Below are positions 3,102 through 15,799 of a stretch of 64,000 nt of DNA, in pieces. The notes beneath the pieces are model-generated. The model was not told the origin of the DNA. It did no database searches and saw only the letters and a list, made by a program, of their open reading frames with translations. Numbering within the stretch: position 1 is the first letter of the stretch; each line of letters starts with the position of its first letter. Position numbers and translations under genes: made by a program. This DNA comes from Chryseolinea lacunae (GTDB lineage Bacteria; Bacteroidota; Bacteroidia; Cytophagales; Cyclobacteriaceae): assembly GCF_016735595.1 (NCBI RefSeq), contig NZ_JAERRB010000012.1, forward strand, positions 62,001 to 126,000. Direction: 5' to 3'.

Positions 3102-3309
3102 ATCAATAAGAGGTGAGAAACACGACCACTCCCCTCTTAACTTTCGTTACCTGACATTTGGAAACCTTAGGCCTCGTTACCATTAAACAATCAACGCTTA
3201 GGGTGGCGAAAGAAGTGGAAAGGACATGACCAAATGCCTACTCGGCATTCTCCGTATGGGTTTACTCCGGCGTGCAGATATTGAATAAATGTCTTATTTT
3301 CGCGCCGCA

Positions 3310-3753
3310 ATGAAGAGAATAATTGAATACAGGCGCCTTTTGGGCGTTGGCGAATCGGCCGATTTGAAAGAATTGAAGACCATTTACCGGAATTTCATGA
3401 AAGACTGGCATCCGGACAAGTTTCAGTCAGACGAGGAGAAAACCGCCGCCGAAGAGAAAAGCAGAGCGTTTATTGAGGCCTATCACTTTTTGGTGAGCAT
3501 AGCACCCGAAACACGCGAGCAGAAGCTGGAAGAGTACACCGCGGTGATCACGGCTTCCAAAATGACCGACTTTCAATACAAGGGTCAAACCCTTCAGGTC
3601 TATTTTACAGATGGCAGCGCATTCGAATATTTCGGTGTGCCCCGCAGTATCTACCTGAAACTGGTGAACGCAGAGTCGCCCGATCGTTTCGCCAGAAGAC
3701 ACATTTATAGCGATTTCATTTATAGAAAGGTGACGAAGGCGGTTGAGGCGTAA
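3310..3753 (+). CDS. J-domain protein with C-terminal KTSC domain
   Basis: The first about 65 residues are a J domain with the catalytic HPD tripeptide (residues 34-36, in KDWHPDKF), which stimulates DnaK ATPase. The C-terminal half (about 85-145) resembles the KTSC domain: a hydrophobic strand, TDGSAFEYFGVP, then a Tyr-Leu-Lys-Leu helix and an Arg-His-Ile segment. There is no G/F linker or zinc centre, so this is a type III J-protein. I prefer the ATG at 3310 to the in-frame one at 3289: the match to J domains begins there and TATTTTCG just upstream resembles a -7 box. Client unknown. Confidence 0.8.
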   Translation: MKRIIEYRRLLGVGESADLKELKTIYRNFMKDWHPDKFQSDEEKTAAEEKSRAFIEAYHFLVSIAPETREQKLEEYTAVITASKMTDFQYKGQTLQVYFTDGSAFEYFGVPRSIYLKLVNAESPDRFARRHIYSDFIYRKVTKAVEA

Positions 3754-6115: not shown

Positions 6116-9100
6116 TCATCGATCACCCTTGATCGCCTTTGCAATAGCCTCAAGATGTTCGTTGAACGAACTCAGTTGAATGAGCATCTTTCCTGAGGTG
6201 TCGCCTTCGTTCAACATTCCGAATTTGTTGTTCTTCACAAAGATCTCTTTGATTTGCTTCCAGCGTTTGTCTTGTTGTTCGTTGAAAAAGCCTGCGATCT
6301 CTTTCAGACGAAGCAGGTTGGCTTCGGCATCCGATGTCAGGGTTTGCGATTCGCCTTCGTAGTGGGAAAGAATGAGGGTGTTCACTTCTTCGGGATTCAT
6401 GAGGGGCACAACTTTGCCTGCCATCTTGTTCATGTTACGGTATGAGCCTTGCAGCTTGAAGGCCGGTTCGGTGCGATAGGCGTCTTTCATGGCGGCACTC
6501 GCAATGTATTGTTGGTTCACCAGCATCACCACGTCGCGAATGCGCATAATGTTTTTGAGCACGGCGATGGCGTCGTCTATTTCCTGTTGGTTGTAGTTTC
6601 CTTCGAGGTCCGGCAGCAGCTCGCTGTTTGTTTCCACGTAGCCGATAAGTTTGTAGAGATCATCAAAGCTGCGTGTGCTGATGCGTTGCAGGTAGCGATT
6701 CTCAGCCACACAGTTTTCGATCAGACTGAGTTTGAAAAGCTGATCGGAACTGCCGATCACATCACCGAGGTTATAGACGTCTGCACGGTTTGCCAGCATG
6801 TCGGGAATCTTGAATTGCTCTCCGCTCTCCGTATAGGGGTTGCCCGCCATCACCACGCAGAAACGTTTTCCGCGCAGGTCATAGGTTTTGCTTTCGCCCT
6901 CAAAAATGCCGTCCATTTTCCGCTGGCCATCGGCGAGCGATATAAACTTTTGCAGAAACTCCGGGCTGCAATGCTGGATGTCGTCGACATACAACATCAC
7001 GTTGTCGGCCATTTCAAACGAGAGATTTATTTTTTGAAGCTCCGCCCTCGCCCCCGACGTTGTGGCTTCCTGCGGGTCGATGGATGTGATGCTGTGGCCG
7101 ATGGTAGGTCCATTGATTTTCACAAAGTGAAGGCCCATGGTTTTTGCCAGGTATTCCATCAGGGTTGTTTTGCCATAGCCCGGTGGCGACACCAGCAACA
7201 ACATGCCCATGCGCGCCGTGCGTTTGTCGTCGCCCGCTGCGCCGATCTGCTTTGCCAGGTTGGCACCGATCAACGGGAAGTATACTTCGCTGATCAGGCG
7301 ATTGCGAACAAACGAGCTCAATACTTTTGGCTCCAGCTCGTTGATCTTTAACTGCTGGCGGTATGCCTGCACCAATTGTTCTTTGAGCTGGTTAAACGAT
7401 GTGAACGCAGGAACAATCGCGTCAAAATAGCGGCGCATCTTTTTCATGAAGTGATGGAAGTTCACCGTGTACTTCCCGTCACCCTGTATCACCGCATGGG
7501 TACCTCTTATGCCCGTAAGATCAACCGAATCTGCGGCAGCTCTTTCCCGGTATGCATGGTCTTTGAAAAGCAACAGGCACCCGGCTTCATCCACATATTG
7601 TTTATCGACCGTGACAGATTGCGTTTGAAGAAACGCGTGTAGCCAGCTTTGAATAATGTAAAACCGCTCGGCCGTGTCGAAACCGCTATTGCTTATCTCC
7701 TGCAAAAACAACGCTGTTCTTCGTTGTGCGTGCAAATATTCATCGAAGGCTTTTTTGAGATGCAGGGCCTGTTGGCTACACGTAAAAAACTTACCGGTCG
7801 AAAGTTCTGAATATAGATACTGCGCCACATCATTTACATCTACCGGTTCGTAGGCAATTTTGGCCTGCACAAACCGCGACGACAATTCTTCGCCCACAAA
7901 ACCTGCACGTTTGCTTTGCGGAAAACTTTCCTGTATGGAGTAGGCCGCCGTGATCAGTTGCTGGAGCTTGGTGCGTGAAGCCTCGTCCAATCCAAACCAG
8001 AACAGCTGCGCCGCTACCCGCACGGCAGGCGAAAACTGAAGGATGCCCAATTCGGCCTGCAGTTTTTTAAGCGCCTGATAGATGGCTGCAGCATCGATGT
8101 TGTGAACCCCTTTGAGATAGGCTGCGCCATAGTCGCGCTCCGTGCGATCGTTCAGAAACGTTTCGTGGTTCCATTGCTCGTTTTGCTGAAGACTTTCGAG
8201 ATAGGTTTGATAGGCGAGGTATTCGGAACGATAGACCTCCGCATTCTCCGATATCAATTCCTGCTCCCAGATGGCTCGATGCTGATAGAGCGATTCGGCG
8301 GCAACCTGCTTGTAGAAGCTTGTTCCCAAAAGATGAAAGTATAACTTCTCGTTTTTGCGAACGATAGTCAGGTCCAGCACTTGTTTGTTGACCACAAACT
8401 TGTTAGTGCCCAGTGCGATTATGTTCTGGCCATCAACAAAAAGATCGGTCTTGTCTTTGAGATTCCGCAGGGCGGTTTCCTGTGCAACCTTCACCAGGTT
8501 CTCCAGGTTTTCCGCTTTTGCCACGTCGCCGAACTCTTTTAACTCCGCCATCAGGTTACGCACCTTGTCTACCATCAGGTCTGTAGAAAAGAAAGCGTAG
8601 ATACTTTCCTTGTCGTTGAAGGACTGGGCTTTGTTTTCAATATTTTTCAGAACGCGCAAGCCCACCTGTTCCAGGGCGGTTGTCCGCTTGTTCAGTTGCG
8701 CAATCAGCATTTCCTTTTTGCCGTTGAAGGCCTTAATTACCTCGTCGCGTTTGTCGGCAATTTTAAGAACGAACTCGTCAAAGTCGGCAAACTTGCTTTC
8801 AAGGTCTTCGACCTGGATGCTCACCTTCGTAAAATATTCCTCACACTTTTCGGGCGAGGTGGAAAGATCGAGAAAGTTCACAATGCTCTGATCCAGCAAC
8901 GTGAGTTGTGCGTGGAACTGACCTGTCGATTCTTGCGCTCTCAGTGCCGTGGCAATGCGCACCAGCTCCGCCTTCACCTCGTTCAACGATGCAAAAATGA
9001 GCGAGATCTTTTCGACGATGCGCGTGGTTTGCGTGGTGTCTTCAATCTTCAGGCTGTTCAGAATATCGATAAGCATTTCCAGTCCACCGGAAATTTCTTT

Positions 9101-10954
9101 TATCGATTGTTCTACGGGCTGGGCGTCGATCACCTTCGCTACCCGGGATGCTGCCTTCTTAAGATCGGTCACCTTGGCTTCATAAGGCGCCAGGGCTTCT
9201 TCCTTTAACAAAAACGTAACCGTTTCCTGCGAAAGGGAGCTGTTGTATTGGGCGAGTGTTTCTTTCAGTGCGTTGACCGCAGTCGCATCGATATACCGAA
9301 CGTTCAGCAGATCGATAACTGCACCCTGCATGCTCCGCGTGGCCGTGAGCAGGTCCACCAGTTGATCCAGGGACGTGATGGTCGCCCCTTTCACATCGAT
9401 CACCAGTTGGTCCACGCGCTTTTGCATGGCCCCCAGATTGTCCTTTGCGTGCTTGCGCTGGGCCTGCACCTTGGCAAATTCGTCTATGGCCGTGTTGGCA
9501 ATGGTTCTGATCTGAATCAGCGGTGTGGCCAGGTCGAATGTGCCTTCATCTTTTAACCAGAAATAAGAATCGACAATGTCGTTGGCGCGTTTATGGATGT
9601 CTTCGTAAAGATCTTCGTAGCTATCTTCTTTTTGCAGGAGCTGTATAACCTCCTGGCTTTCGCTCATGGCACTCACAATGTCTTTGTTGCCGATCTTATA
9701 CAACACATTGTTGCTCATGGCGGTGTTTTCCTGGAGCGTAGACGTGTAGGGTGTTTGCCAGATTTGCACCTGGTGATGACGCACGGCTTCGGTTTCCGAT
9801 CTGAAATACACCAGCATGCCATCATTAAACACCGTGAAGCCGTTGCAGATGATGGGCGTCTCCACCTGTTGGGCAATCATGTTGTATGACATCAACACAT
9901 AGGTGTTGCTCTGCTTCTGGTAGAATACATACAAAAAGTCTTCGCCATTGGGCGACGCCATGCTGTTGTTGAATTCCAGTTCCGATAGTTGCAGTTCGAA
10001 TATTTTGTGCTCGCCGTTTTGGAGGTAATAGCCATTCGGGAAGATTACACCCTGGTTGTCGGGCAGCAAAACGCCGGCATCGAGCAGGCTGTTGATGGGA
10101 AGAACCTGTTTTGTTCGCACATTAAAAATGTAGGCGCGAAAGTTCTCTCCATAGGGTTTTATCTTGACAGGTATGAGATTTCCGAGATCTGCATAATGAT
10201 ATTCGGCATCATCCAGTTGCTGATCTTTGTTTGCGACGGGGTCCGAATAAATTCCCTGTCCGGATTCTGTGTTGTTTTCAATTTTAAACGTGATGTCGCC
10301 GTGAATGGCTTCGATGAACACTTTGTCTAAAATCGAAATGTGCGAATGCAGGCCGAGCCGCCGATTGCTGAGATCGGTTTTTATCCAATCGAAACCCTGG
10401 AGTGGTGGTTTTACTTCATGAATACTTCTGTCGTCGACATATACCAGCGTTTCATCTTTGATCAACCATTTAAAGGCCTTCCGGTCGTCGGGGCTTTTGC
10501 TGGTTTGAAAGATCATGAACAGGTGGTTCTCCGTCTTCACAAACTTGGCAAAGATCGAATCCCTGTAGTATTTATAAAGGTTGCTGAAGTCGGTAATAAA
10601 ATCCTCGTCTTCAATCAACGTGAGCGGTTCCGGATCGAAGCGCTCGCCCGTGAACTTATAGATGCTGAAGACATCGCTGAGCTTGATGTTTTCGCGCAAC
10701 CCAAAATGAACGTTATAGCCAAAGATGGTGAGGTTGCCAAAGGCCCTGATGCCACGCGCCACACCGCTGTTGATGGTGGTGATGCGCTGATTGGCAACCA
10801 GCTGAAATCCTGTGGAGTTGAATATTTCCTTGCGGGCGCTATTCAGCCTGGCCAGTCTTTCCGATAAATTCAACCGCTGCTCTTCCAGGCGCTTCCGGAT
10901 GATCTCATAGGTTCCGGAATCCAATACAGTATTTGTGTTTTCAGTACCTGCCAT
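6116..10954 (-). CDS. Giant AAA+ ATPase ('DNA repair ATPase'/DUF3686 type)
   Basis: A 1612-residue cytoplasmic protein. Residues about 1-430 are beta-rich and resemble the N-terminal part of proteins named DNA repair ATPase (DUF3686). Residues about 430-850 form long coiled-coil helices. The C-terminal quarter is one AAA+ domain with Walker A SPPGYGKTT (Lys1262), Walker B VMLYVDDI (Asp1324-Asp1325) and sensor 1 CVVMAGNPY. The second acidic residue of Walker B is Asp rather than the usual Glu. It is the last gene of the PspA-flotillin operon, 129 bp after flotillin. This suggests it remodels PspA or flotillin assemblies, rather as MoxR/PspF/Vps4-type ATPases do; the name 'DNA repair' has no support here. 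Confidence 0.85.
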   Translation of the reverse strand: MAGTENTNTVLDSGTYEIIRKRLEEQRLNLSERLARLNSARKEIFNSTGFQLVANQRITTINSGVARGIRAFGNLTIFGYNVHFGLRENIKLSDVFSIYKFTGERFDPEPLTLIEDEDFITDFSNLYKYYRDSIFAKFVKTENHLFMIFQTSKSPDDRKAFKWLIKDETLVYVDDRSIHEVKPPLQGFDWIKTDLSNRRLGLHSHISILDKVFIEAIHGDITFKIENNTESGQGIYSDPVANKDQQLDDAEYHYADLGNLIPVKIKPYGENFRAYIFNVRTKQVLPINSLLDAGVLLPDNQGVIFPNGYYLQNGEHKIFELQLSELEFNNSMASPNGEDFLYVFYQKQSNTYVLMSYNMIAQQVETPIICNGFTVFNDGMLVYFRSETEAVRHHQVQIWQTPYTSTLQENTAMSNNVLYKIGNKDIVSAMSESQEVIQLLQKEDSYEDLYEDIHKRANDIVDSYFWLKDEGTFDLATPLIQIRTIANTAIDEFAKVQAQRKHAKDNLGAMQKRVDQLVIDVKGATITSLDQLVDLLTATRSMQGAVIDLLNVRYIDATAVNALKETLAQYNSSLSQETVTFLLKEEALAPYEAKVTDLKKAASRVAKVIDAQPVEQSIKEISGGLEMLIDILNSLKIEDTTQTTRIVEKISLIFASLNEVKAELVRIATALRAQESTGQFHAQLTLLDQSIVNFLDLSTSPEKCEEYFTKVSIQVEDLESKFADFDEFVLKIADKRDEVIKAFNGKKEMLIAQLNKRTTALEQVGLRVLKNIENKAQSFNDKESIYAFFSTDLMVDKVRNLMAELKEFGDVAKAENLENLVKVAQETALRNLKDKTDLFVDGQNIIALGTNKFVVNKQVLDLTIVRKNEKLYFHLLGTSFYKQVAAESLYQHRAIWEQELISENAEVYRSEYLAYQTYLESLQQNEQWNHETFLNDRTERDYGAAYLKGVHNIDAAAIYQALKKLQAELGILQFSPAVRVAAQLFWFGLDEASRTKLQQLITAAYSIQESFPQSKRAGFVGEELSSRFVQAKIAYEPVDVNDVAQYLYSELSTGKFFTCSQQALHLKKAFDEYLHAQRRTALFLQEISNSGFDTAERFYIIQSWLHAFLQTQSVTVDKQYVDEAGCLLLFKDHAYRERAAADSVDLTGIRGTHAVIQGDGKYTVNFHHFMKKMRRYFDAIVPAFTSFNQLKEQLVQAYRQQLKINELEPKVLSSFVRNRLISEVYFPLIGANLAKQIGAAGDDKRTARMGMLLLVSPPGYGKTTLMEYLAKTMGLHFVKINGPTIGHSITSIDPQEATTSGARAELQKINLSFEMADNVMLYVDDIQHCSPEFLQKFISLADGQRKMDGIFEGESKTYDLRGKRFCVVMAGNPYTESGEQFKIPDMLANRADVYNLGDVIGSSDQLFKLSLIENCVAENRYLQRISTRSFDDLYKLIGYVETNSELLPDLEGNYNQQEIDDAIAVLKNIMRIRDVVMLVNQQYIASAAMKDAYRTEPAFKLQGSYRNMNKMAGKVVPLMNPEEVNTLILSHYEGESQTLTSDAEANLLRLKEIAGFFNEQQDKRWKQIKEIFVKNNKFGMLNEGDTSGKMLIQLSSFNEHLEAIAKAIKGDR

Positions 10955-11083
10955 TGCAAAAAAAGATAAACGCTACATCCTTGTAAATTACTGTCGTTCG
11001 CTCGAACTGAACGGGCCACTCTCATCAACTTCCAATGTATGCCTGTTGATACCGGCACCATGGAATCATCAGTGATTGAAACC

Positions 11084-13111
11084 CTACAGCTTCTTGTTAG
11101 ACAATCCCAAACTGCTTGCCAGGTTGGCGAGGTTGAGTAGCGATGAACGATCCTCGTCTGAACTGTTCTGTTGCATTTTCAGAATCAGACTTGAAATGGT
11201 CAGGTTTTTAATATCGTTGGACGTTATGTTGTATTTGTCGGCAAAGTCGCGGATACGATTCAACAGGTCGCCACCATTTCCGCCCTCTCCCAGCAACGCG
11301 GTTTTGATCTGTGTTGCGTTTTCGCTTTCGTTGATCAATCGGTCAAACCCTTTTGCATTCGAAACCTGGTTAACAATGTTCTGGAAGAACATCGTTTCGC
11401 CGCCCACGATGTCGATGTTTGCCGATTTCAACGCTTCTCCCAATATCGTGGCTTGTGCGTCGGCAATGTGTTTCTGGATGTTGATCTGCGCGAGCGCAAT
11501 GTCTCTGTCTTTTGCAAGCAACAACTTGAACTCTTCGTGGTCTTTTCCAACGGAATCAAGCTTCTTCATGGCTTCGGCTTTTTCCTGGATGCCGGCGGCT
11601 TCGGCCAATGCTTTTTCTTTTGTTACTTCGGCTTGTGTCAATCCTTCTTTCCGTTTCGCTTCGGCAACCTTCTCAATCACATTCGCATCAACGATGCCTT
11701 GTCTTTCTGAGGCTTCGGCTTTCGCCATCATCACTTCTGCTTCGGACAGGCCCTGTGTTGCGCCTTCACGTGTTTGTGCTTCGGCCAGTATTTTGCGCGC
11801 TTCGGCCTGTTTCACCGCCGCTTCTTTTTTAGCGTCTGCATCGATGATCAACTGTTTTGCTTTTTCTTCTGATGCTTTCTTTTCAGCCTCTGCGGCCTTC
11901 ACGGTATGGATCAGTTTTTCTTCTGCCTGCTGGCTGGCGATGGTGAGCCCTACCGATTTGTTGCGCTCCACTTCGCGGAAAGCCTCCAGGTCCTTTATGC
12001 CCTGTTGCTCTTCCACAACACCCTTTTCGAGACGCACCCGGTCGCGGATCACATCCTGGATGTTCTTACGTTCCACTTCGAGTGTTTTTTCCTTATCAAT
12101 CTGGGCCAGTGTCACAATCTTCTCACGTTCGGTAGCTTCCAGGGCGCGGTCTTTTTCAACACGCTCTGTTTCTACTGCATTGGTGCGCTGTTTATTCTTT
12201 TCGGCGATGATGATCTGACGCAACTTGTTTTCTTCCTGCACGGCAAGCGACTCTTCCGTTTTGATGCGAACGGTTTCAGATTTAAGTCTTTCTTCTTCTC
12301 TTACCTTGAGTATCTCGGCTTGTTCGCGCGAGCGTATGTTGTCTATTTCGCGGCGTTGCTTTTCTTCTTTTTCAGACATCTGGCGGTCCAACTCCAGGAT
12401 GGCTTCGCGGGCTTCAACGTCTTGTTTCTTAATCACCTTTTCTTCCTCACGCTTGATGAGGTTGGCTTTTATGTTTTGCGCGGCGGTGAGTTCGGTAATC
12501 TTCTTGATGCCCTGCGAGTCGAGGATGTTTTGCGGGCTGAGGAATTTCATTTTTGTCTGTTCCAGAAAGTCGATGGCGCAGTCGTCGAGGATGTAGCCGT
12601 TCAGGTCGGTTCCAATGATGTTCAGGATTTCGGTTCTGAACTCGCGGCGTGCTTCATAGAGTTCGATAAAATCAAACTTTTTACCTACCGTTTTTAATGC
12701 CTCGGAGAATTTTGCTTCGAAGAGGTCGAGAAGTGTTTCCGTATCGCTGGCGCGCTCTGTGCCGATGATCTGGGCCACGTTCAACACATCGTCAACATTC
12801 TTGTTTACGCGAACAAAGAATGCCACTTTGATGTCGGCGCGGATGTTGTCTTTGCAGATAAGACCATCCTGATCAAGACGCTCGATCTGCAATTTTTTTA
12901 CAGAGATGTCCATCACCTCCATTTGGTGGAGAATCGGAATCACATACATACCCTTGTTGAAGGCGACTTTGCCACCGCCAACCCCCGTGCGCACAATGGT
13001 TTTTCCCTGCGGTATCTTTTTGTAGAAAGTCGCAAAGGCAAAGAGGATAATAAAAATAAAGAAGGCAATTCCGCCGATGAATAATAAACTGATGCCGCCA
13101 AGTACGCCCAT
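11084..13111 (-). CDS. Flotillin-like SPFH protein (YqiK type)
   Basis: A 675-residue protein with one N-terminal membrane segment (about residues 5-29), an SPFH/PHB domain (about 30-200, with GGKVAFNKGMYVIPILHQ) and a very long Glu/Lys/Ala-rich coiled coil (about 215-560). A smaller C-terminal region follows (about 575-675, with the SANIDIVGGETMFFQNIV stretch of YqiK-type flotillins). Flotillins form large oligomeric membrane domains that organise lipids and partner proteins. The preceding gene encodes the NfeD/YqiJ-type partner expected for this class, 63 bp away. Confidence 0.93.
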   Translation of the reverse strand: MGVLGGISLLFIGGIAFFIFIILFAFATFYKKIPQGKTIVRTGVGGGKVAFNKGMYVIPILHQMEVMDISVKKLQIERLDQDGLICKDNIRADIKVAFFVRVNKNVDDVLNVAQIIGTERASDTETLLDLFEAKFSEALKTVGKKFDFIELYEARREFRTEILNIIGTDLNGYILDDCAIDFLEQTKMKFLSPQNILDSQGIKKITELTAAQNIKANLIKREEEKVIKKQDVEAREAILELDRQMSEKEEKQRREIDNIRSREQAEILKVREEERLKSETVRIKTEESLAVQEENKLRQIIIAEKNKQRTNAVETERVEKDRALEATEREKIVTLAQIDKEKTLEVERKNIQDVIRDRVRLEKGVVEEQQGIKDLEAFREVERNKSVGLTIASQQAEEKLIHTVKAAEAEKKASEEKAKQLIIDADAKKEAAVKQAEARKILAEAQTREGATQGLSEAEVMMAKAEASERQGIVDANVIEKVAEAKRKEGLTQAEVTKEKALAEAAGIQEKAEAMKKLDSVGKDHEEFKLLLAKDRDIALAQINIQKHIADAQATILGEALKSANIDIVGGETMFFQNIVNQVSNAKGFDRLINESENATQIKTALLGEGGNGGDLLNRIRDFADKYNITSNDIKNLTISSLILKMQQNSSDEDRSSLLNLANLASSLGLSNKKL

Positions 13112-13174
13112 AGCAATAGGAAGATTTAAGGTTTAACTTTTGAATGAAAGTGTTTTATAATAGAATGCGCTTAA

Positions 13175-13855
13175 TCAAACAATGTTGGAGAGGTTGATAT
13201 CCGGAACCACGAGGTAGAATTTTTTGTCGGCCGATTCGCCGGCAATCATCACGTCTGCATCATAATGAATAACGACACCTGTTTTGCTTCTCACGTTGAT
13301 GCGAATGATATCATTTTGTATTTTCAATTCGGCTGCACCAATCTTGTCGCCCGAAATTGTGCTTCTCATCTTAGCCGTTCTTCCCAACAGCTCCTGGGGT
13401 TCTTCTCCATTATAGCCCATGGCGTCATACACTTTGATCAACGGTTTGGTGGCATACCGGGTGATGATGTAGGTGACAAAAAAAACGGGTATCAGAATGA
13501 CAACCGATTTCCAACCCCAGTCTGCCAGCCCCAGAAATACGGACGACGTTAAGGTGATTATCCAGGCGAGAAACTTAAAAACGGAATAGACCACCATGAA
13601 CGGCACCTTGCCGATGTTCACAAACTCCAATGCTTTTTGAAAGACAGACTTGTCTGCACTAACATCATCGCCATCGGCATCAACATCGGTGTCGATGTCC
13701 GCTCCGTGCCCCGGCAAATCGCTATCCACTCCCGAATCTCCAAACAGGTCTCCGGCCACGAAGGTGATTATCCAGTAGATCGTGGTCACGCCAGTGAGAA
13801 TGGTCATGATGGCATTGCTCAGCGGATGAAAAAGCAGGTGTGTTATACTCGACAT
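13175..13855 (-). CDS. YqiJ/NfeD-like OB-fold membrane protein with Asp-rich loop
   Basis: A 226-residue protein: a membrane helix at about 12-35, an acidic loop (about 37-70, containing DIDTDVDADGDD), two further membrane helices (about 82-135), and a C-terminal OB-fold-like beta domain (about 148-220, ELLGRTAKMRSTISGDKIGAAE split across the first strands). This is the architecture of YqiJ/NfeD-type flotillin partners. The Asp-x-Asp series resembles calcium-binding loops, so divalent-cation sensing at the membrane surface is possible (inference). Spaced 28 bp after pspA and 63 bp before the flotillin gene. Confidence 0.85.
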   Translation of the reverse strand: MSSITHLLFHPLSNAIMTILTGVTTIYWIITFVAGDLFGDSGVDSDLPGHGADIDTDVDADGDDVSADKSVFQKALEFVNIGKVPFMVVYSVFKFLAWIITLTSSVFLGLADWGWKSVVILIPVFFVTYIITRYATKPLIKVYDAMGYNGEEPQELLGRTAKMRSTISGDKIGAAELKIQNDIIRINVRSKTGVVIHYDADVMIAGESADKKFYLVVPDINLSNIV

Positions 13856-13883
13856 CGGTATTTAAAGTGAATGGTTAACCGGT

Positions 13884-14585
13884 TTACAATATGCCTAATT
13901 TTTCTTTGATGGCCTGAAGATCTTTTTCAATAGACAAAGAATCGTTTTTCAGCAGGCTGTTCAATTCTTCTTTCTTGCTATTGCTGTCGCGCGAAATTTC
14001 GCCGTAGGCTTTTGCAAGGGCTTCCTGGTCGTCTACTTTTGCTTTCATGCGCTCGAGCATGGCGATTATTCCGTTGCTATCGACCTGGGCTAGTTGTTTG
14101 TTTACCTGCTCGGTTGCCTTGCTCACTTTTGCCCGGGCCGTTAACGTCCGCAATTCCTTTTCCCACTTCTCCATGTTCTCTTTCAGAATTTCGGTATTGC
14201 GCAGCATTTCCCTCGACGATTGCTGCAACGCAACGGCCTGCTGCCCGATCTCTTCCGATTCCAGATAATATTTTTTATGGAGCGTCAGCGCTTCACGCGC
14301 CAGGTCTTCAGCCTTAACCAGGTCGACCTGACCAGACTGAGCTTTTTGCATGATCAATATAGCCTTTTCCGCATAACTTCTGGATTCCTGCTGGCGCTGA
14401 AGTTGATCATTTTCCGTGCGGATTGCCAGGGCTTTCACTTTGGCATAGGCCTCTGTGGCTTGCGACAGATCGTTGCGCAGTTCGCGAAGACCCTGTTCTG
14501 TCATTTTAATGGGATCTTCCATTTTATCGACCGCGGCGTGGATTTCGGCTTGTCCTATCCTGAAAAGTCTCTTGAAAATATTCAT
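13884..14585 (-). CDS. PspA/IM30 family membrane-stress protein
   Basis: A 233-residue, almost entirely helical protein. It starts MNIFKRLFRIGQAEIHAAVDK, an amphipathic N-terminal helix followed by helix 1, then EDPIKMTEQGLRELRNDLSQA and long coiled-coil helices typical of PspA, IM30/Vipp1 and ESCRT-III relatives. These proteins polymerise on stressed membranes and remodel or seal them. Length matches the family. It sits second in the operon, between the YbjN-like gene and the YqiJ/flotillin pair, with gaps of 42 and 28 bp, so the products are probably made together. Confidence 0.93.
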   Translation of the reverse strand: MNIFKRLFRIGQAEIHAAVDKMEDPIKMTEQGLRELRNDLSQATEAYAKVKALAIRTENDQLQRQQESRSYAEKAILIMQKAQSGQVDLVKAEDLAREALTLHKKYYLESEEIGQQAVALQQSSREMLRNTEILKENMEKWEKELRTLTARAKVSKATEQVNKQLAQVDSNGIIAMLERMKAKVDDQEALAKAYGEISRDSNSKKEELNSLLKNDSLSIEKDLQAIKEKLGIL

Positions 14586-14627
14586 GACTGATAATTTTTA
14601 GGTTAAAACCAATCGTTGTATTCTGAA

Positions 14628-15020
14628 TTATAGCTTCGAAAAATCGATGATCTGTTGCGAGAACTCACTCAGCAATAGTCCGAGGGAGTTTAGGGCACTC
14701 TCAAATTCATTGAAGTCGATGTTCTGAAGTTGCATGGTGTAGCGAAACAGCACCCGGTCGCCTTCTTCATTAATAACAAAGCCGCCGTGAATGGTGTCCC
14801 TGTTTTTTTGCAGCAATTTTTTGAACATGTCCAGGTTGTCTTCCCGGAAAGAGAAGAGAAACTGCTCCATAATAAGGATGGGCGGTGCAACGCCGAGAAT
14901 TAAATTATGAATGCCATCGGATGGGTTATCGATCTTGAGAATGCCATTCTGCTCATTTCTATACAGAATTTTGCAGTTCAGGCGGAGTGCGAAATCTTCG
15001 ATAATCTCAAAATGCTTCAT
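14628..15020 (-). CDS. Tir-chaperone/YbjN-like small protein, operon leader
   Basis: A 130-residue soluble alpha/beta protein. Its pattern (alternating strands, HGGFVINEEGDRVLFRYT, then the long helix FNEFESALNSLGLLLSEF) resembles the type III secretion chaperone/YbjN fold. Proteins of this fold act as small dimeric adaptors that hold partners in a competent state. As the first gene before pspA it may be a chaperone or regulator of PspA or of the ATPase (inference). The family call rests on fold-like pattern only. Confidence 0.68.
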   Translation of the reverse strand: MKHFEIIEDFALRLNCKILYRNEQNGILKIDNPSDGIHNLILGVAPPILIMEQFLFSFREDNLDMFKKLLQKNRDTIHGGFVINEEGDRVLFRYTMQLQNIDFNEFESALNSLGLLLSEFSQQIIDFSKL

Positions 15021-15043
15021 GAGCGTAGTTTCTGCTGACCAAA

Positions 15044-15075
15044 CAAATCTACCGACTACTTTTTACAATTGCAAA
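15044..15075 (-). promoter_or_regulatory. Promoter of the PspA-flotillin operon
   Basis: On the minus strand TTTG (15072-15075), a 20-bp spacer and TAGATTTG (15044-15051) form an exact Bacteroidota promoter, 23 bases before the ATG at 15020. The motif TTACAATT (15063-15070, plus strand) lies in the spacer next to the -33 element. A second copy sits in the opposing promoter, suggesting a shared regulator. Confidence 0.75.
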
Positions 15076-15086
15076 AATATTTAGCA

Positions 15087-15116
15087 TTGTGATAATCAAA
15101 ATTACAATTAACTTTG
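15087..15116 (+). promoter_or_regulatory. Promoter of the XRE regulator gene, possibly leaderless
   Basis: TTG (15087-15089), a 19-bp spacer and TAACTTTG (15109-15116) match the consensus exactly at the -7 box. The ATG at 15122 is only five bases beyond the box, so the transcript would begin at or very near the start codon. A TTACAATT copy (15102-15109) overlaps the -7 box, consistent with autorepression. Confidence 0.7.
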
Positions 15117-15121
15117 GCTAC

Positions 15122-15799
15122 ATGACAAAGATTGGCGCCAACATCAAAAAGATCAGAACGACCAAAGGGCTTAGTCAGCAGGCATTTGCGGAGTTGTTTG
15201 AGCTAACCCGGGGGAATATTTCTTCGTATGAGGAAAACCGGGCGGAGCCGCGCATTGAAACTGTTATGCAGATTGCCAATCATTTTTGCATACCCCTGAA
15301 CCAGTTTATTACGCAAAGCCTGTCCATACACGAGATCCTGAAGTATAACGGCGACAAGCTGATCGAGGATGAAAATCACATCATCAATCTTCAGCTCCGG
15401 CAAGTTCCCTTCATCAACGACACGATCTATACAAAATGTAGTCGCCATGAATTGTCGTTTACGGACTGGGATAGTTTTCCGAAACTGGTCTTGCCCGAAC
15501 CAAACAATCAGAAAATGCTTGCGTTGCGTTTCAACCCCAACATTTCGCACCACGAATCGCTTCCGCAGTACCAAATGAACGACGTGTTGATTTTTGACGA
15601 GGTGACCCAACAGAACATTCACCTCTGCCAGCACAAGACCGGCCTCTTCACGGCTGAGCGTGAAATCATGATTGGCCAGTATGAAATAAAGGACGAGAAG
15701 ATTGATCTTGTCTTAAGCGATTTCAAGCGCGAGCGATTTGAGTTCAAGTATACACAGCAGTTTTGGAAATTGTTTGCGGTGTATCAGCATGAGAAATGA
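15122..15799 (+). CDS. XRE-family regulator with S24-like C-terminal region
   Basis: A 225-residue protein. Residues about 3-62 are a Cro/C1-type helix-turn-helix (IGANIKKIRTTKGLSQQAFA, then LTRGNISSYEENRAEPRIET). The C-terminal half is beta-rich; its QYQMNDVLIFDEV stretch resembles the S24/LexA-like fold of phage-type repressors, but I see no convincing Ser-Lys cleavage dyad. It is divergent from the PspA-flotillin operon and is the natural candidate for its regulator. I use 15122 rather than an in-frame ATG at 15089, because the -7 box lies between them. Confidence 0.85.
   Translation: MTKIGANIKKIRTTKGLSQQAFAELFELTRGNISSYEENRAEPRIETVMQIANHFCIPLNQFITQSLSIHEILKYNGDKLIEDENHIINLQLRQVPFINDTIYTKCSRHELSFTDWDSFPKLVLPEPNNQKMLALRFNPNISHHESLPQYQMNDVLIFDEVTQQNIHLCQHKTGLFTAEREIMIGQYEIKDEKIDLVLSDFKRERFEFKYTQQFWKLFAVYQHEK

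What the first reader, a model, noticed from the sequence alone, without database searches (positions are those of the whole stretch)
6116..15799. PspA-flotillin-YqiJ-giant AAA+ ATPase operon with a divergent XRE regulator
Five tightly spaced leftward genes (gaps 42, 28, 63, 129 bp) combine a small chaperone-like protein, an ESCRT-III-like PspA, an OB-fold membrane protein, flotillin and a 1612-residue ATPase. PspA and flotillin associations are known, but this combination of an adaptor, an Asp-rich YqiJ-type protein and a coiled-coil AAA+ protein suggests an uncharacterised membrane-repair machine. The ATPase could disassemble PspA or flotillin polymers, as Vps4 does for ESCRT-III. The label 'DNA repair ATPase' is not supported by this neighbourhood.
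Basis: partly seen in the sequence, partly recalled or inferred. Interest (0 to 1): 0.9.

Follow-up and report, generated by a model that had tools for sequence, protein, structure and literature searches.

The report
Flotillin operon with its own ATPase
A bacterial operon, already described in print but never tested, joins a membrane-scaffold protein (flotillin), its partner, a giant ATP-driven motor and a membrane-repair protein, and the comparisons made here suggest that the motor works with the scaffold rather than on the repair protein.

Summary
In detail: five leftward genes with gaps of 42, 28, 63 and 129 bp (CesT/Tir-like, PspA, YqiJ-like, flotillin, 1612-aa AAA+ ATPase) and a divergent XRE gene. 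The combination is not new: Ravi et al. 2024 (PMC11237479, section 19) describe this gene group as a neighbourhood of unknown function.

What I add. (1) The ATPase goes with the flotillin, not with PspA: in 295 Bacteroidia genomes ATPase and flotillin occur in the same 14; in 149 genomes of the Rhodopirellula phylum, in the same 23 at high score. PspA occurs in those 14 and in 26 others; of 38 genomes whose ATPase locus shows no PspA, 17 have none at all. (2) The predicted AAA+ domain has a pre-Sensor-1 hairpin, unlike Vps4-type ATPases. (3) The XRE gene is a conserved sixth member; a palindrome in its promoter region occurs once in the 7.9-Mb genome, here, and overlaps a predicted −33 box.

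Best reading: a flotillin/NfeD machine with a dedicated AAA+ remodeller, to which Bacteroidota added PspA and its chaperone. No physical interaction was tested.

The parts
6116..10954 (-). Giant AAA+ ATPase, 1612 aa: N-terminal beta-rich domain (DUF3686), about 420 residues of long helices (DUF7902 inside), C-terminal AAA+ domain
   Evidence: Pfam; predicted models; active-site residues identical in 92 of 92 sequences
11084..13111 (-). Flotillin-type SPFH (Band 7) protein, 675 aa, long coiled-coil part
   Evidence: Band_7 E=5.5e-11 on first 270 aa; same 14 of 295 and 23 of 149 genomes as the ATPase
13175..13855 (-). YqiJ/NfeD2-like membrane protein with Asp-rich loop
   Evidence: YqiJ_N 21.2 bits, cut-off 23; homologues found in 78 of 83 loci with enough flank
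13884..14585 (-). PspA/IM30 (ESCRT-III superfamily), 233 aa
   Evidence: Pfam; solved Vipp1/PspA relatives E=2.7e-14 and weaker
14628..15020 (-). CesT/Tir-like chaperone, 130 aa
   Evidence: CesT_Tir_1 E=9.6e-46
15122..15799 (+). Divergent XRE-type regulator (225 aa from the ATG at 15122)
   Evidence: HTH_19/HTH_3; homologue in 44 loci, divergent in each
15070..15086 (.). Palindrome TGCWAA-N5-TTWGCA, predicted XRE operator
   Evidence: Exact pattern in 35 of 44 intergenic regions; single site in the 7.9-Mb genome
15072..15075 (-). Predicted -33 box TTTG, inside the operator
   Evidence: TTTG-N20-TAGATTTG read; Bacteroidota promoter consensus recalled
15044..15051 (-). Predicted -7 box TAGATTTG, 23 nt before the CesT ATG
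   Evidence: comparable box in 24 of 35 regions with an exact operator, 2.7% of shuffles

Best explanation
The operon encodes a flotillin/NfeD-type membrane scaffold with a dedicated AAA+ remodeller and, in Bacteroidota, an ESCRT-III-like PspA with a CesT/Tir-like chaperone. Flotillin and the YqiJ-like protein form an assembly on the inner membrane. The ATPase docks on it through its beta-domain or long helices and uses ATP to take the assembly apart or remodel it. CesT/Tir keeps PspA in check until the membrane is damaged; PspA then acts on the patch that flotillin marks. The divergent XRE protein binds one palindrome overlapping the operon's -33 box and keeps the operon off until an envelope signal arrives; its position also allows autorepression. 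Shown here by comparison: gene order, co-occurrence, conserved active-site residues, predicted fold, palindrome and its spacing. Inferred: every physical interaction, the substrate, the ATP-driven step, repression and the signal.
For: Same 14 of 295 Bacteroidia genomes hold ATPase and flotillin, one of them (G368) with the two on different contigs; same 23 of 149 genomes in the phylum of R. baltica at high flotillin score. 80 of 83 loci with at least 6 kb upstream have the flotillin near the ATPase, 46 of 83 PspA; the three without it have it elsewhere. 17 of 38 genomes tested have the ATPase and no PspA. Distance correlation ATPase-flotillin 0.81 against ATPase-PspA 0.60 in 42 loci. Active-site residues identical in 92 of 92. 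XRE in 44 loci, two of which (L048, L050) have no PspA or CesT but keep XRE and operator. Operator single in genome, -33/-7 spacing.
Against: Co-occurrence can come from co-transfer of an operon without direct contact. No interaction was predicted or measured. All 14 ATPase genomes in the Bacteroidia sample do have PspA somewhere. ATPase-XRE and ATPase-YqiJ correlate as well as ATPase-flotillin (0.81, 0.80). Two of ten loci checked at genome level lack the flotillin (L056, L063), though one is a 1.9-Mb MAG and in the other the ATPase sits at a contig end. L085 has flotillin and YqiJ on the opposite strand. The operator pattern was drawn from the regions in which it was counted, and the reversed control pattern occurs five times in the genome.
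Confidence: 0.45

Rival explanations
1. FtsH-HflK/C-like platform: flotillin is not the substrate but a cage or corral that gives the ATPase access to membrane or unfolded client proteins, which it extracts or unfolds.
For: SPFH proteins form domed rings and HflK/C surrounds the AAA protease FtsH (abstracts in a search listing only, PMC12624060, PMC12048511). The one-to-one pairing of ATPase and flotillin fits equally.
Against: No protease gene in the conserved set and no protease domain in the ATPase. Flotillin is thought to sit on the cytosolic side, unlike HflK/C (recalled).
Confidence: 0.25
2. Vps4-like disassembly of PspA: the ATPase recycles ESCRT-III-like PspA polymers.
For: PspA in 14 of 14 ATPase genomes of the Bacteroidia sample, 26 of 281 others; adjacent in 11 of 14. 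P-loop sequence closest to CDC48/VCP and Rix7. Three genomes with the ATPase but no adjacent PspA (G296, G368, G475) have one elsewhere.
Against: No PspA in 17 of 38 genomes with the ATPase; PspA near the ATPase in only 1 of 27 non-Bacteroidota loci; lowest distance correlation of any partner (0.60); AAA+ fold not of the classical clade by model; no MIT domain found by Pfam.
Confidence: 0.13
3. Defence module against phages or other mobile elements.
For: Patchy distribution (14 of 295 Bacteroidia genomes); some loci on plasmids (12 records of the plasmid collection, several of them chromosome-sized).
Against: PADLOC matches only the P-loop (mad8, 71 residues) and the HTH of the regulator. No homologue in 50,697 phage records, none confirmed in viral contigs. 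No recognisable effector.
Confidence: 0.07
4. DNA repair or DNA-processing ATPase, as the database name says.
For: Pfam describes DUF3686 as 'ATPase involved in DNA repair' and records carry 'DNA repair ATPase'; RuvB is among the Foldseek matches of lowest E-value.
Against: Neighbours are membrane proteins in 80 of 83 loci; RuvB TM-scores by target length are only 0.32-0.36; no DNA-repair gene in the conserved set.
Confidence: 0.04

Closest known systems
CesT/Tir-PspA + band-7/flotillin + AAA+ + YqiJ/YuaF operon group of Ravi et al. 2024 (PMC11237479, section 19)
   Same: The same five kinds of protein; they also report shorter flotillin-YqiJ operons, some with the AAA+ gene, without the dyad.
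   Different: The main text has no mention of an XRE or LexA regulator or an operator (term search; supplements not seen), no counts of ATPase-flotillin co-occurrence in what I read, and treats PspA as the focus.
Prokaryotic SPFH2 (flotillin) with NfeD2 (YuaF/YqiJ) gene pairs (PMC2636767, passages)
   Same: Flotillin next to a YuaF/YqiJ-type NfeD2 protein.
   Different: Passages seen do not report the giant ATPase; terms 'ATPase' and 'PspA' occur 0 times in that text.
FtsH with HflK/C
   Same: An SPFH assembly paired with a AAA+ enzyme at the membrane (works-like comparison, abstracts in a listing).
   Different: FtsH is a membrane-anchored protease; this ATPase has no protease domain and a beta-domain plus long helices.
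ESCRT-III with Vps4
   Same: An ESCRT-III-superfamily protein (PspA) and a AAA+ ATPase in one operon.
   Different: AAA+ domain of another superclade by predicted fold; no MIT domain found; PspA dispensable.
MoxR-type AAA+ (NorQ, CbbQ, RavA)
   Same: Pre-Sensor-1 hairpin, long helix before the presumed Sensor 2, highest TM-scores by target length.
   Different: Walker A is SPPGYGKT, not the AK[T/S] form given for MoxR; no VWA partner in the conserved set.

Membership tests
Ravi et al. CesT/Tir-PspA-flotillin-AAA operon group | CesT/Tir-PspA dyad | tested here: met
   Pfam CesT_Tir_1 and PspA_IM30
Ravi et al. [quoted passage not shown]
   Band_7 on first 270 aa; Pfam flotillin C-terminal model only E=0.26
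Ravi et al. CesT/Tir-PspA-flotillin-AAA operon group | AAA+ with N-terminal beta-propeller and coiled coil | tested here: met
   beta-rich then helical model, pLDDT 86.5; weak matches to propeller structures
Ravi et al. CesT/Tir-PspA-flotillin-AAA operon group | 3TM YqiJ/YuaF protein | tested here: inconclusive
   YqiJ_N 21.2 bits against cut-off 23; no PDB match
Vps4 / classical AAA (clade 3) | No beta-hairpin between alpha-3 and Sensor-1 strand | tested here: not met
   Strands 217-222 and 225-230 of the model lie there; definition of the hairpin superclade, clades 4-7,
Vps4 / classical AAA (clade 3) | N-terminal MIT domain (Vps4) | tested here: not met
   No MIT match at E<=0.1 in Pfam
Vps4 / classical AAA (clade 3) | Sequence similarity of the AAA+ core | tested here: inconclusive
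   P-loop stretch of about 35-70 residues is most like CDC48/VCP and Rix7
MoxR-type AAA+ (clade 7) | Pre-Sensor-1 hairpin | tested here: met
MoxR-type AAA+ (clade 7) | Pre-Sensor-2 helical insertion and trans-acting Sensor 2 | tested here: inconclusive
   33-residue helix 327-359 before presumed Sensor 2 in the model; hexamer not modelled
MoxR-type AAA+ (clade 7) | Walker A of the form GXXXXAK[T/S] | tested here: not met
   SPPGYGKT; S1256, G1261 and K1262 in 92 of 92
PspA/Vipp1 (ESCRT-III superfamily) | PspA/IM30 profile over the whole length | tested here: met
   E=3.3e-37, residues 2-228; Vipp1/PspA structures
SPFH/flotillin | Oligomeric cage or microdomain | not testable with these tools
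   needs purified protein or imaging
LexA/CI-like regulator | XRE-type HTH plus S24-like C-terminal domain | tested here: inconclusive
   HTH met; S24 reached cut-off in both relatives tested (L018, L010) but not in the window protein
Any of the above | ATP-driven action on flotillin or PspA | not testable with these tools
   needs purified proteins

The most novel reading that the evidence does not exclude
A AAA+ machine dedicated to flotillin: an ATPase whose obligate partner is one flotillin subfamily and which takes flotillin/NfeD assemblies apart as Vps4 does ESCRT-III, present in at least nine bacterial phyla; in Bacteroidota it was wired to a PspA/CesT repair module and put under a repressor with a single operator in the genome.
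Probability: 0.35. Interest if true: 0.75.

Novelty: new member of a known kind. Interest (0 to 1): 0.5.

Why it matters
How bacterial flotillin assemblies are turned over is, as far as I recall, open. A gene pair that co-occurs one-to-one in two samples names a candidate and makes the question testable by a deletion or a pull-down. It also redirects two leads: the name 'DNA repair ATPase', and PspA as the presumed substrate. The single predicted operator gives a handle to switch the system on.

Tried and rejected
Fusion lead: the L075 ATPase ORF appeared 3320 aa long, which could have been an informative fusion; its tail is a run of N in the record, so an artefact. Whole-protein Pfam scan of the flotillin gave nothing; its first 270 aa gave Band_7. 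Flotillin and YqiJ profiles against solved structures found nothing. Phage records: no match; viral contigs: 30 pattern matches, none a relative. PADLOC: only P-loop and HTH matches. The operator pattern inside the 64-kb window is not significant by count: 2 sites with at most one mismatch against 1.02 expected, 25 of 100 shuffles as many; its weight rests on conservation and promoter spacing.

Tree: quick method, with warnings of long branches and uneven composition. Rows labelled 'none' include loci whose contig ends too near to judge PspA (for example L037, L052, L056, L063, L083), so its count of changes (8, at least 6 forced) is inflated and I do not use it; I use only the nesting of L048/L050 and L095 among loci with PspA.

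Full report
OBSERVATION. The five leftward ORFs and their gaps are exactly as described. Pfam names the first CesT_Tir_1, the second PspA_IM30, the third a sub-threshold YqiJ_N, and the ATPase DUF3686 + DUF7902 + AAA. The flotillin is recognised as Band_7 only when its first 270 residues are scanned alone. The XRE gene most likely starts at the ATG at 15122, 101 bp from the start of the CesT gene. The genome holds one PspA match, one DUF3686 match and one match to the flotillin profile.

ALREADY IN PRINT. Ravi et al. [quoted passage not shown] They add that shorter operons of flotillin, YqiJ/YuaF and, in some cases, the AAA+ gene are more widely distributed and might work with PspA encoded elsewhere. 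I saw the abstract and outline, section 19 in full and passages found by term; the supplements were not open to me. What I read has no experiment on this group. Searches of the open paper library: DUF3686, 0 papers; PspA + flotillin + AAA + CesT, only this paper; YqiJ + flotillin + PspA, only this paper; flotillin + AAA+ ATPase + PspA + operon, only this paper; 'DNA repair ATPase' with flotillin, 0, with PspA, one unrelated listing. Papers outside that library were not searched.

DISTRIBUTION. With the window, seven plasmid loci and seven loci from a phylum sample this gave 95 loci. Not all are independent: L066 and L054 appear to lie in the same assemblies as sample genomes G296 and G368 (identical PspA coordinates). 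By record titles and sampling, the 95 fall in Bacteroidota (62), Planctomycetota (15), Verrucomicrobiota or Kiritimatiellota (7), Desulfobacterota (3), Actinomycetota (3), Bacillota (2), Pseudomonadota (2) and Deinococcota (1). The nearest relative is a Chryseolinea, 89% identical over the ATPase. In evenly drawn samples the ATPase is uncommon: 8 of 296 genomes of the window's phylum, 14 of 295 of its class, 23 of 149 of the phylum of Rhodopirellula baltica.

WHICH GENES BELONG TOGETHER. Of the 83 loci with at least 6 kb upstream of the ATPase, 80 have the flotillin nearby, 78 the YqiJ-like gene, 46 PspA, 44 CesT/Tir of this family and 44 the XRE gene. In Bacteroidota 44 of 56 such loci have the dyad and 44 of 56 the XRE gene; 42 have XRE and PspA, two XRE without PspA, three PspA without XRE. 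Outside Bacteroidota PspA is present in 1 of 27 (plasmid pQBR103, where a YjfI-PspA-glutathionylspermidine-synthase-type operon runs into YqiJ, flotillin and ATPase). In L085 flotillin and YqiJ lie on the opposite strand. The three loci without a flotillin in reach are L054, L090 and L094; all three genomes have it elsewhere, for L090 at a contig end. Of ten loci checked at genome level eight have it; L056 (1.9-Mb MAG) and L063 (ATPase at a contig end) do not.

WHICH PARTNER IS OBLIGATE. In the Bacteroidia sample of 295 genomes the ATPase and the flotillin (profile A4, E<=1e-20) occur in the same 14 genomes. PspA above cut-off occurs in 40 genomes: those 14 and 26 others. The flotillin lies beside the ATPase in 13 of 14 (in G368 on another contig), PspA in 11 of 14. 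In the wider phylum sample PspA is above cut-off in 117 of 296, among them all 8 ATPase genomes. In the sample of 149 genomes of the phylum of R. baltica the ATPase occurs in 23; the flotillin profile scores E<=4.5e-178 in the same 23, and in ten further genomes gives only partial matches, E from 4.0e-45 to 4.5e-70, none reaching beyond profile position 520 of 683. The split between the two classes was made after seeing the scores. Fisher tests (3e-24 and 2e-27; with all 33 flotillin genomes counted, 1e-19; ATPase against PspA 7e-14) ignore kinship and shared operons and serve only as a scale. I tested 38 of the 49 loci that showed no PspA at genome level: 17 have PspA above cut-off somewhere, 4 only weaker matches, 17 none at E<=1e-3; completeness of these genomes is not told. 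Of those 17 loci, 14 had at least 6 kb of upstream DNA, and L035, L048, L050, L079, L095 and L102 look like isolate assemblies by title (in L035 the ATPase frame is split). Distance correlations in 42 loci with all six genes, 100 columns at a time: ATPase with flotillin 0.81, XRE 0.81, YqiJ 0.80, CesT 0.73, PspA 0.60; PspA with CesT 0.71; PspA's own split-half value is 0.85. On a tree of 91 ATPases, L048 and L050 fall among Chryseobacterium loci with PspA, and L095 next to Aquimarina L044 with PspA, so the dyad can be lost with the core kept. I conclude that YqiJ-flotillin-ATPase is the core and CesT-PspA an addition seen in Bacteroidota.

THE ATPase. K1262 (Walker A), D1324-D1325 (Walker B), N1372, R1390 and R1506 are identical in 92 of 92 sequences, and residues 1211-1420 are the best conserved part (mean identity to the window 0.72). 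So the enzyme is expected to be active. Role names for N1372, R1390 and R1506 (Sensor 1, arginine finger, Sensor 2) are by position and recall. [quoted passage not shown] Foldseek, top 50 rows: the lowest E-values go to Ycf2-FtsHi and RuvB; the highest TM-scores by target length to NorQ (0.55-0.56 in three rows, 0.39 in a fourth) and CbbQ (0.50, 0.54), with a Vps4 chain at 0.41 and RuvB at 0.32-0.36. Against this, sequence similarity, mostly confined to the P-loop, is greatest to CDC48/VCP and Rix7, and Walker A is not of the MoxR form. I take 'not of Vps4's clade' as likely and 'MoxR-like' as possible. The model of residues 4-880 (pLDDT 86.5, pTM 0.62) is beta-rich, then about 420 residues of long helices, with weak matches to several propeller structures among others, in line with Ravi et al.

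THE REGULATOR. The XRE homologue is by far the commonest non-core neighbour: 44 loci, divergent and upstream in each; the next cluster is in 11 loci at scattered places. Both relatives scanned have an S24-type C-terminus at or above cut-off; the window protein does not, and by eye the catalytic serine is not conserved (motif recalled), so self-cleavage is unlikely. The intergenic regions share the palindrome TGCWAANNNNNTTWGCA: exact in 35 of 44, at most one mismatch in 38 of 44, against 0% and 1.1% of 2200 dinucleotide shuffles. The pattern was drawn from these same regions and the loci are related, so this count is descriptive. In the 7.9-Mb genome the exact pattern occurs once, at this promoter (window 15070-15086), while the reversed control pattern occurs five times: so no wider set of exact sites. 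In 24 of the 35 regions with an exact site a TAnnTTT[GA] box begins 15-19 nt after it (2.7% of shuffles), which makes the operator's TTTG a -33 box with an 18-20 nt spacer; the window has TTTG-N20-TAGATTTG, 23 nt before the CesT ATG. The promoter consensus is recalled. The three Hymenobacter regions (L010, L092, L093) miss the pattern by three bases but carry a related palindrome (GCTCAAAGCTTGAGC in L092). A protein that covers the -33 box from a palindrome beside its own start is most simply an autorepressor of this operon. That is inference.

HOW IT MOST LIKELY WORKS. Flotillin with its NfeD-type partner forms a scaffold at the inner membrane; the ATPase remodels that scaffold; PspA, kept by its CesT/Tir-like chaperone, adds membrane repair in Bacteroidota; the XRE repressor keeps the set off without stress. 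The FtsH-HflK/C-like variant, in which flotillin is platform and not substrate, cannot be separated from the main reading with these data. The PspA-disassembly reading is less likely.

VERDICT. Real, conserved, published as a gene neighbourhood, functionally open. The new points are the partner assignment by counts, the superclade of the AAA+ domain and the regulator with its predicted single site.

Noticed in passing
window 3289-3753 (+): A 154-aa protein joins a DnaJ domain (E=1.2e-8) and a KTSC domain (E=7e-14).
   Followed up: partly
L011 (plasmid pQBR103), 992-14196: Two operon types described separately by Ravi et al. run together: YjfI-PspA-rhomboid-DUF2491-DUF350-DUF1190-glutathionylspermidine synthase, then YqiJ, flotillin and ATPase.
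   Followed up: no
Ten genomes of the phylum of R. baltica without the ATPase: Their flotillin-like proteins match the profile only up to position 412-520 of 683, so the C-terminal part may be particular to ATPase-linked flotillins and a candidate docking region.
   Followed up: no
L010, L092, L093, between XRE and CesT genes: Hymenobacter regions carry a related palindrome (GCTCAAAGCTTGAGC in L092), and their XRE recognition helix differs from the window's: regulator and site may have changed together.
   Followed up: no
window 13175-13855 and its homologues: YqiJ-like proteins have an Asp-rich stretch: median 10 Asp in the densest 30 residues, at least 8 in 64 of 82. Metal binding is possible.
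   Followed up: partly
L026, L035, L098: The ATPase reads in two or three frames, by decay or assembly error; left as pieces.
   Followed up: no
L085: Flotillin and YqiJ genes lie upstream on the opposite strand to the ATPase.
   Followed up: no
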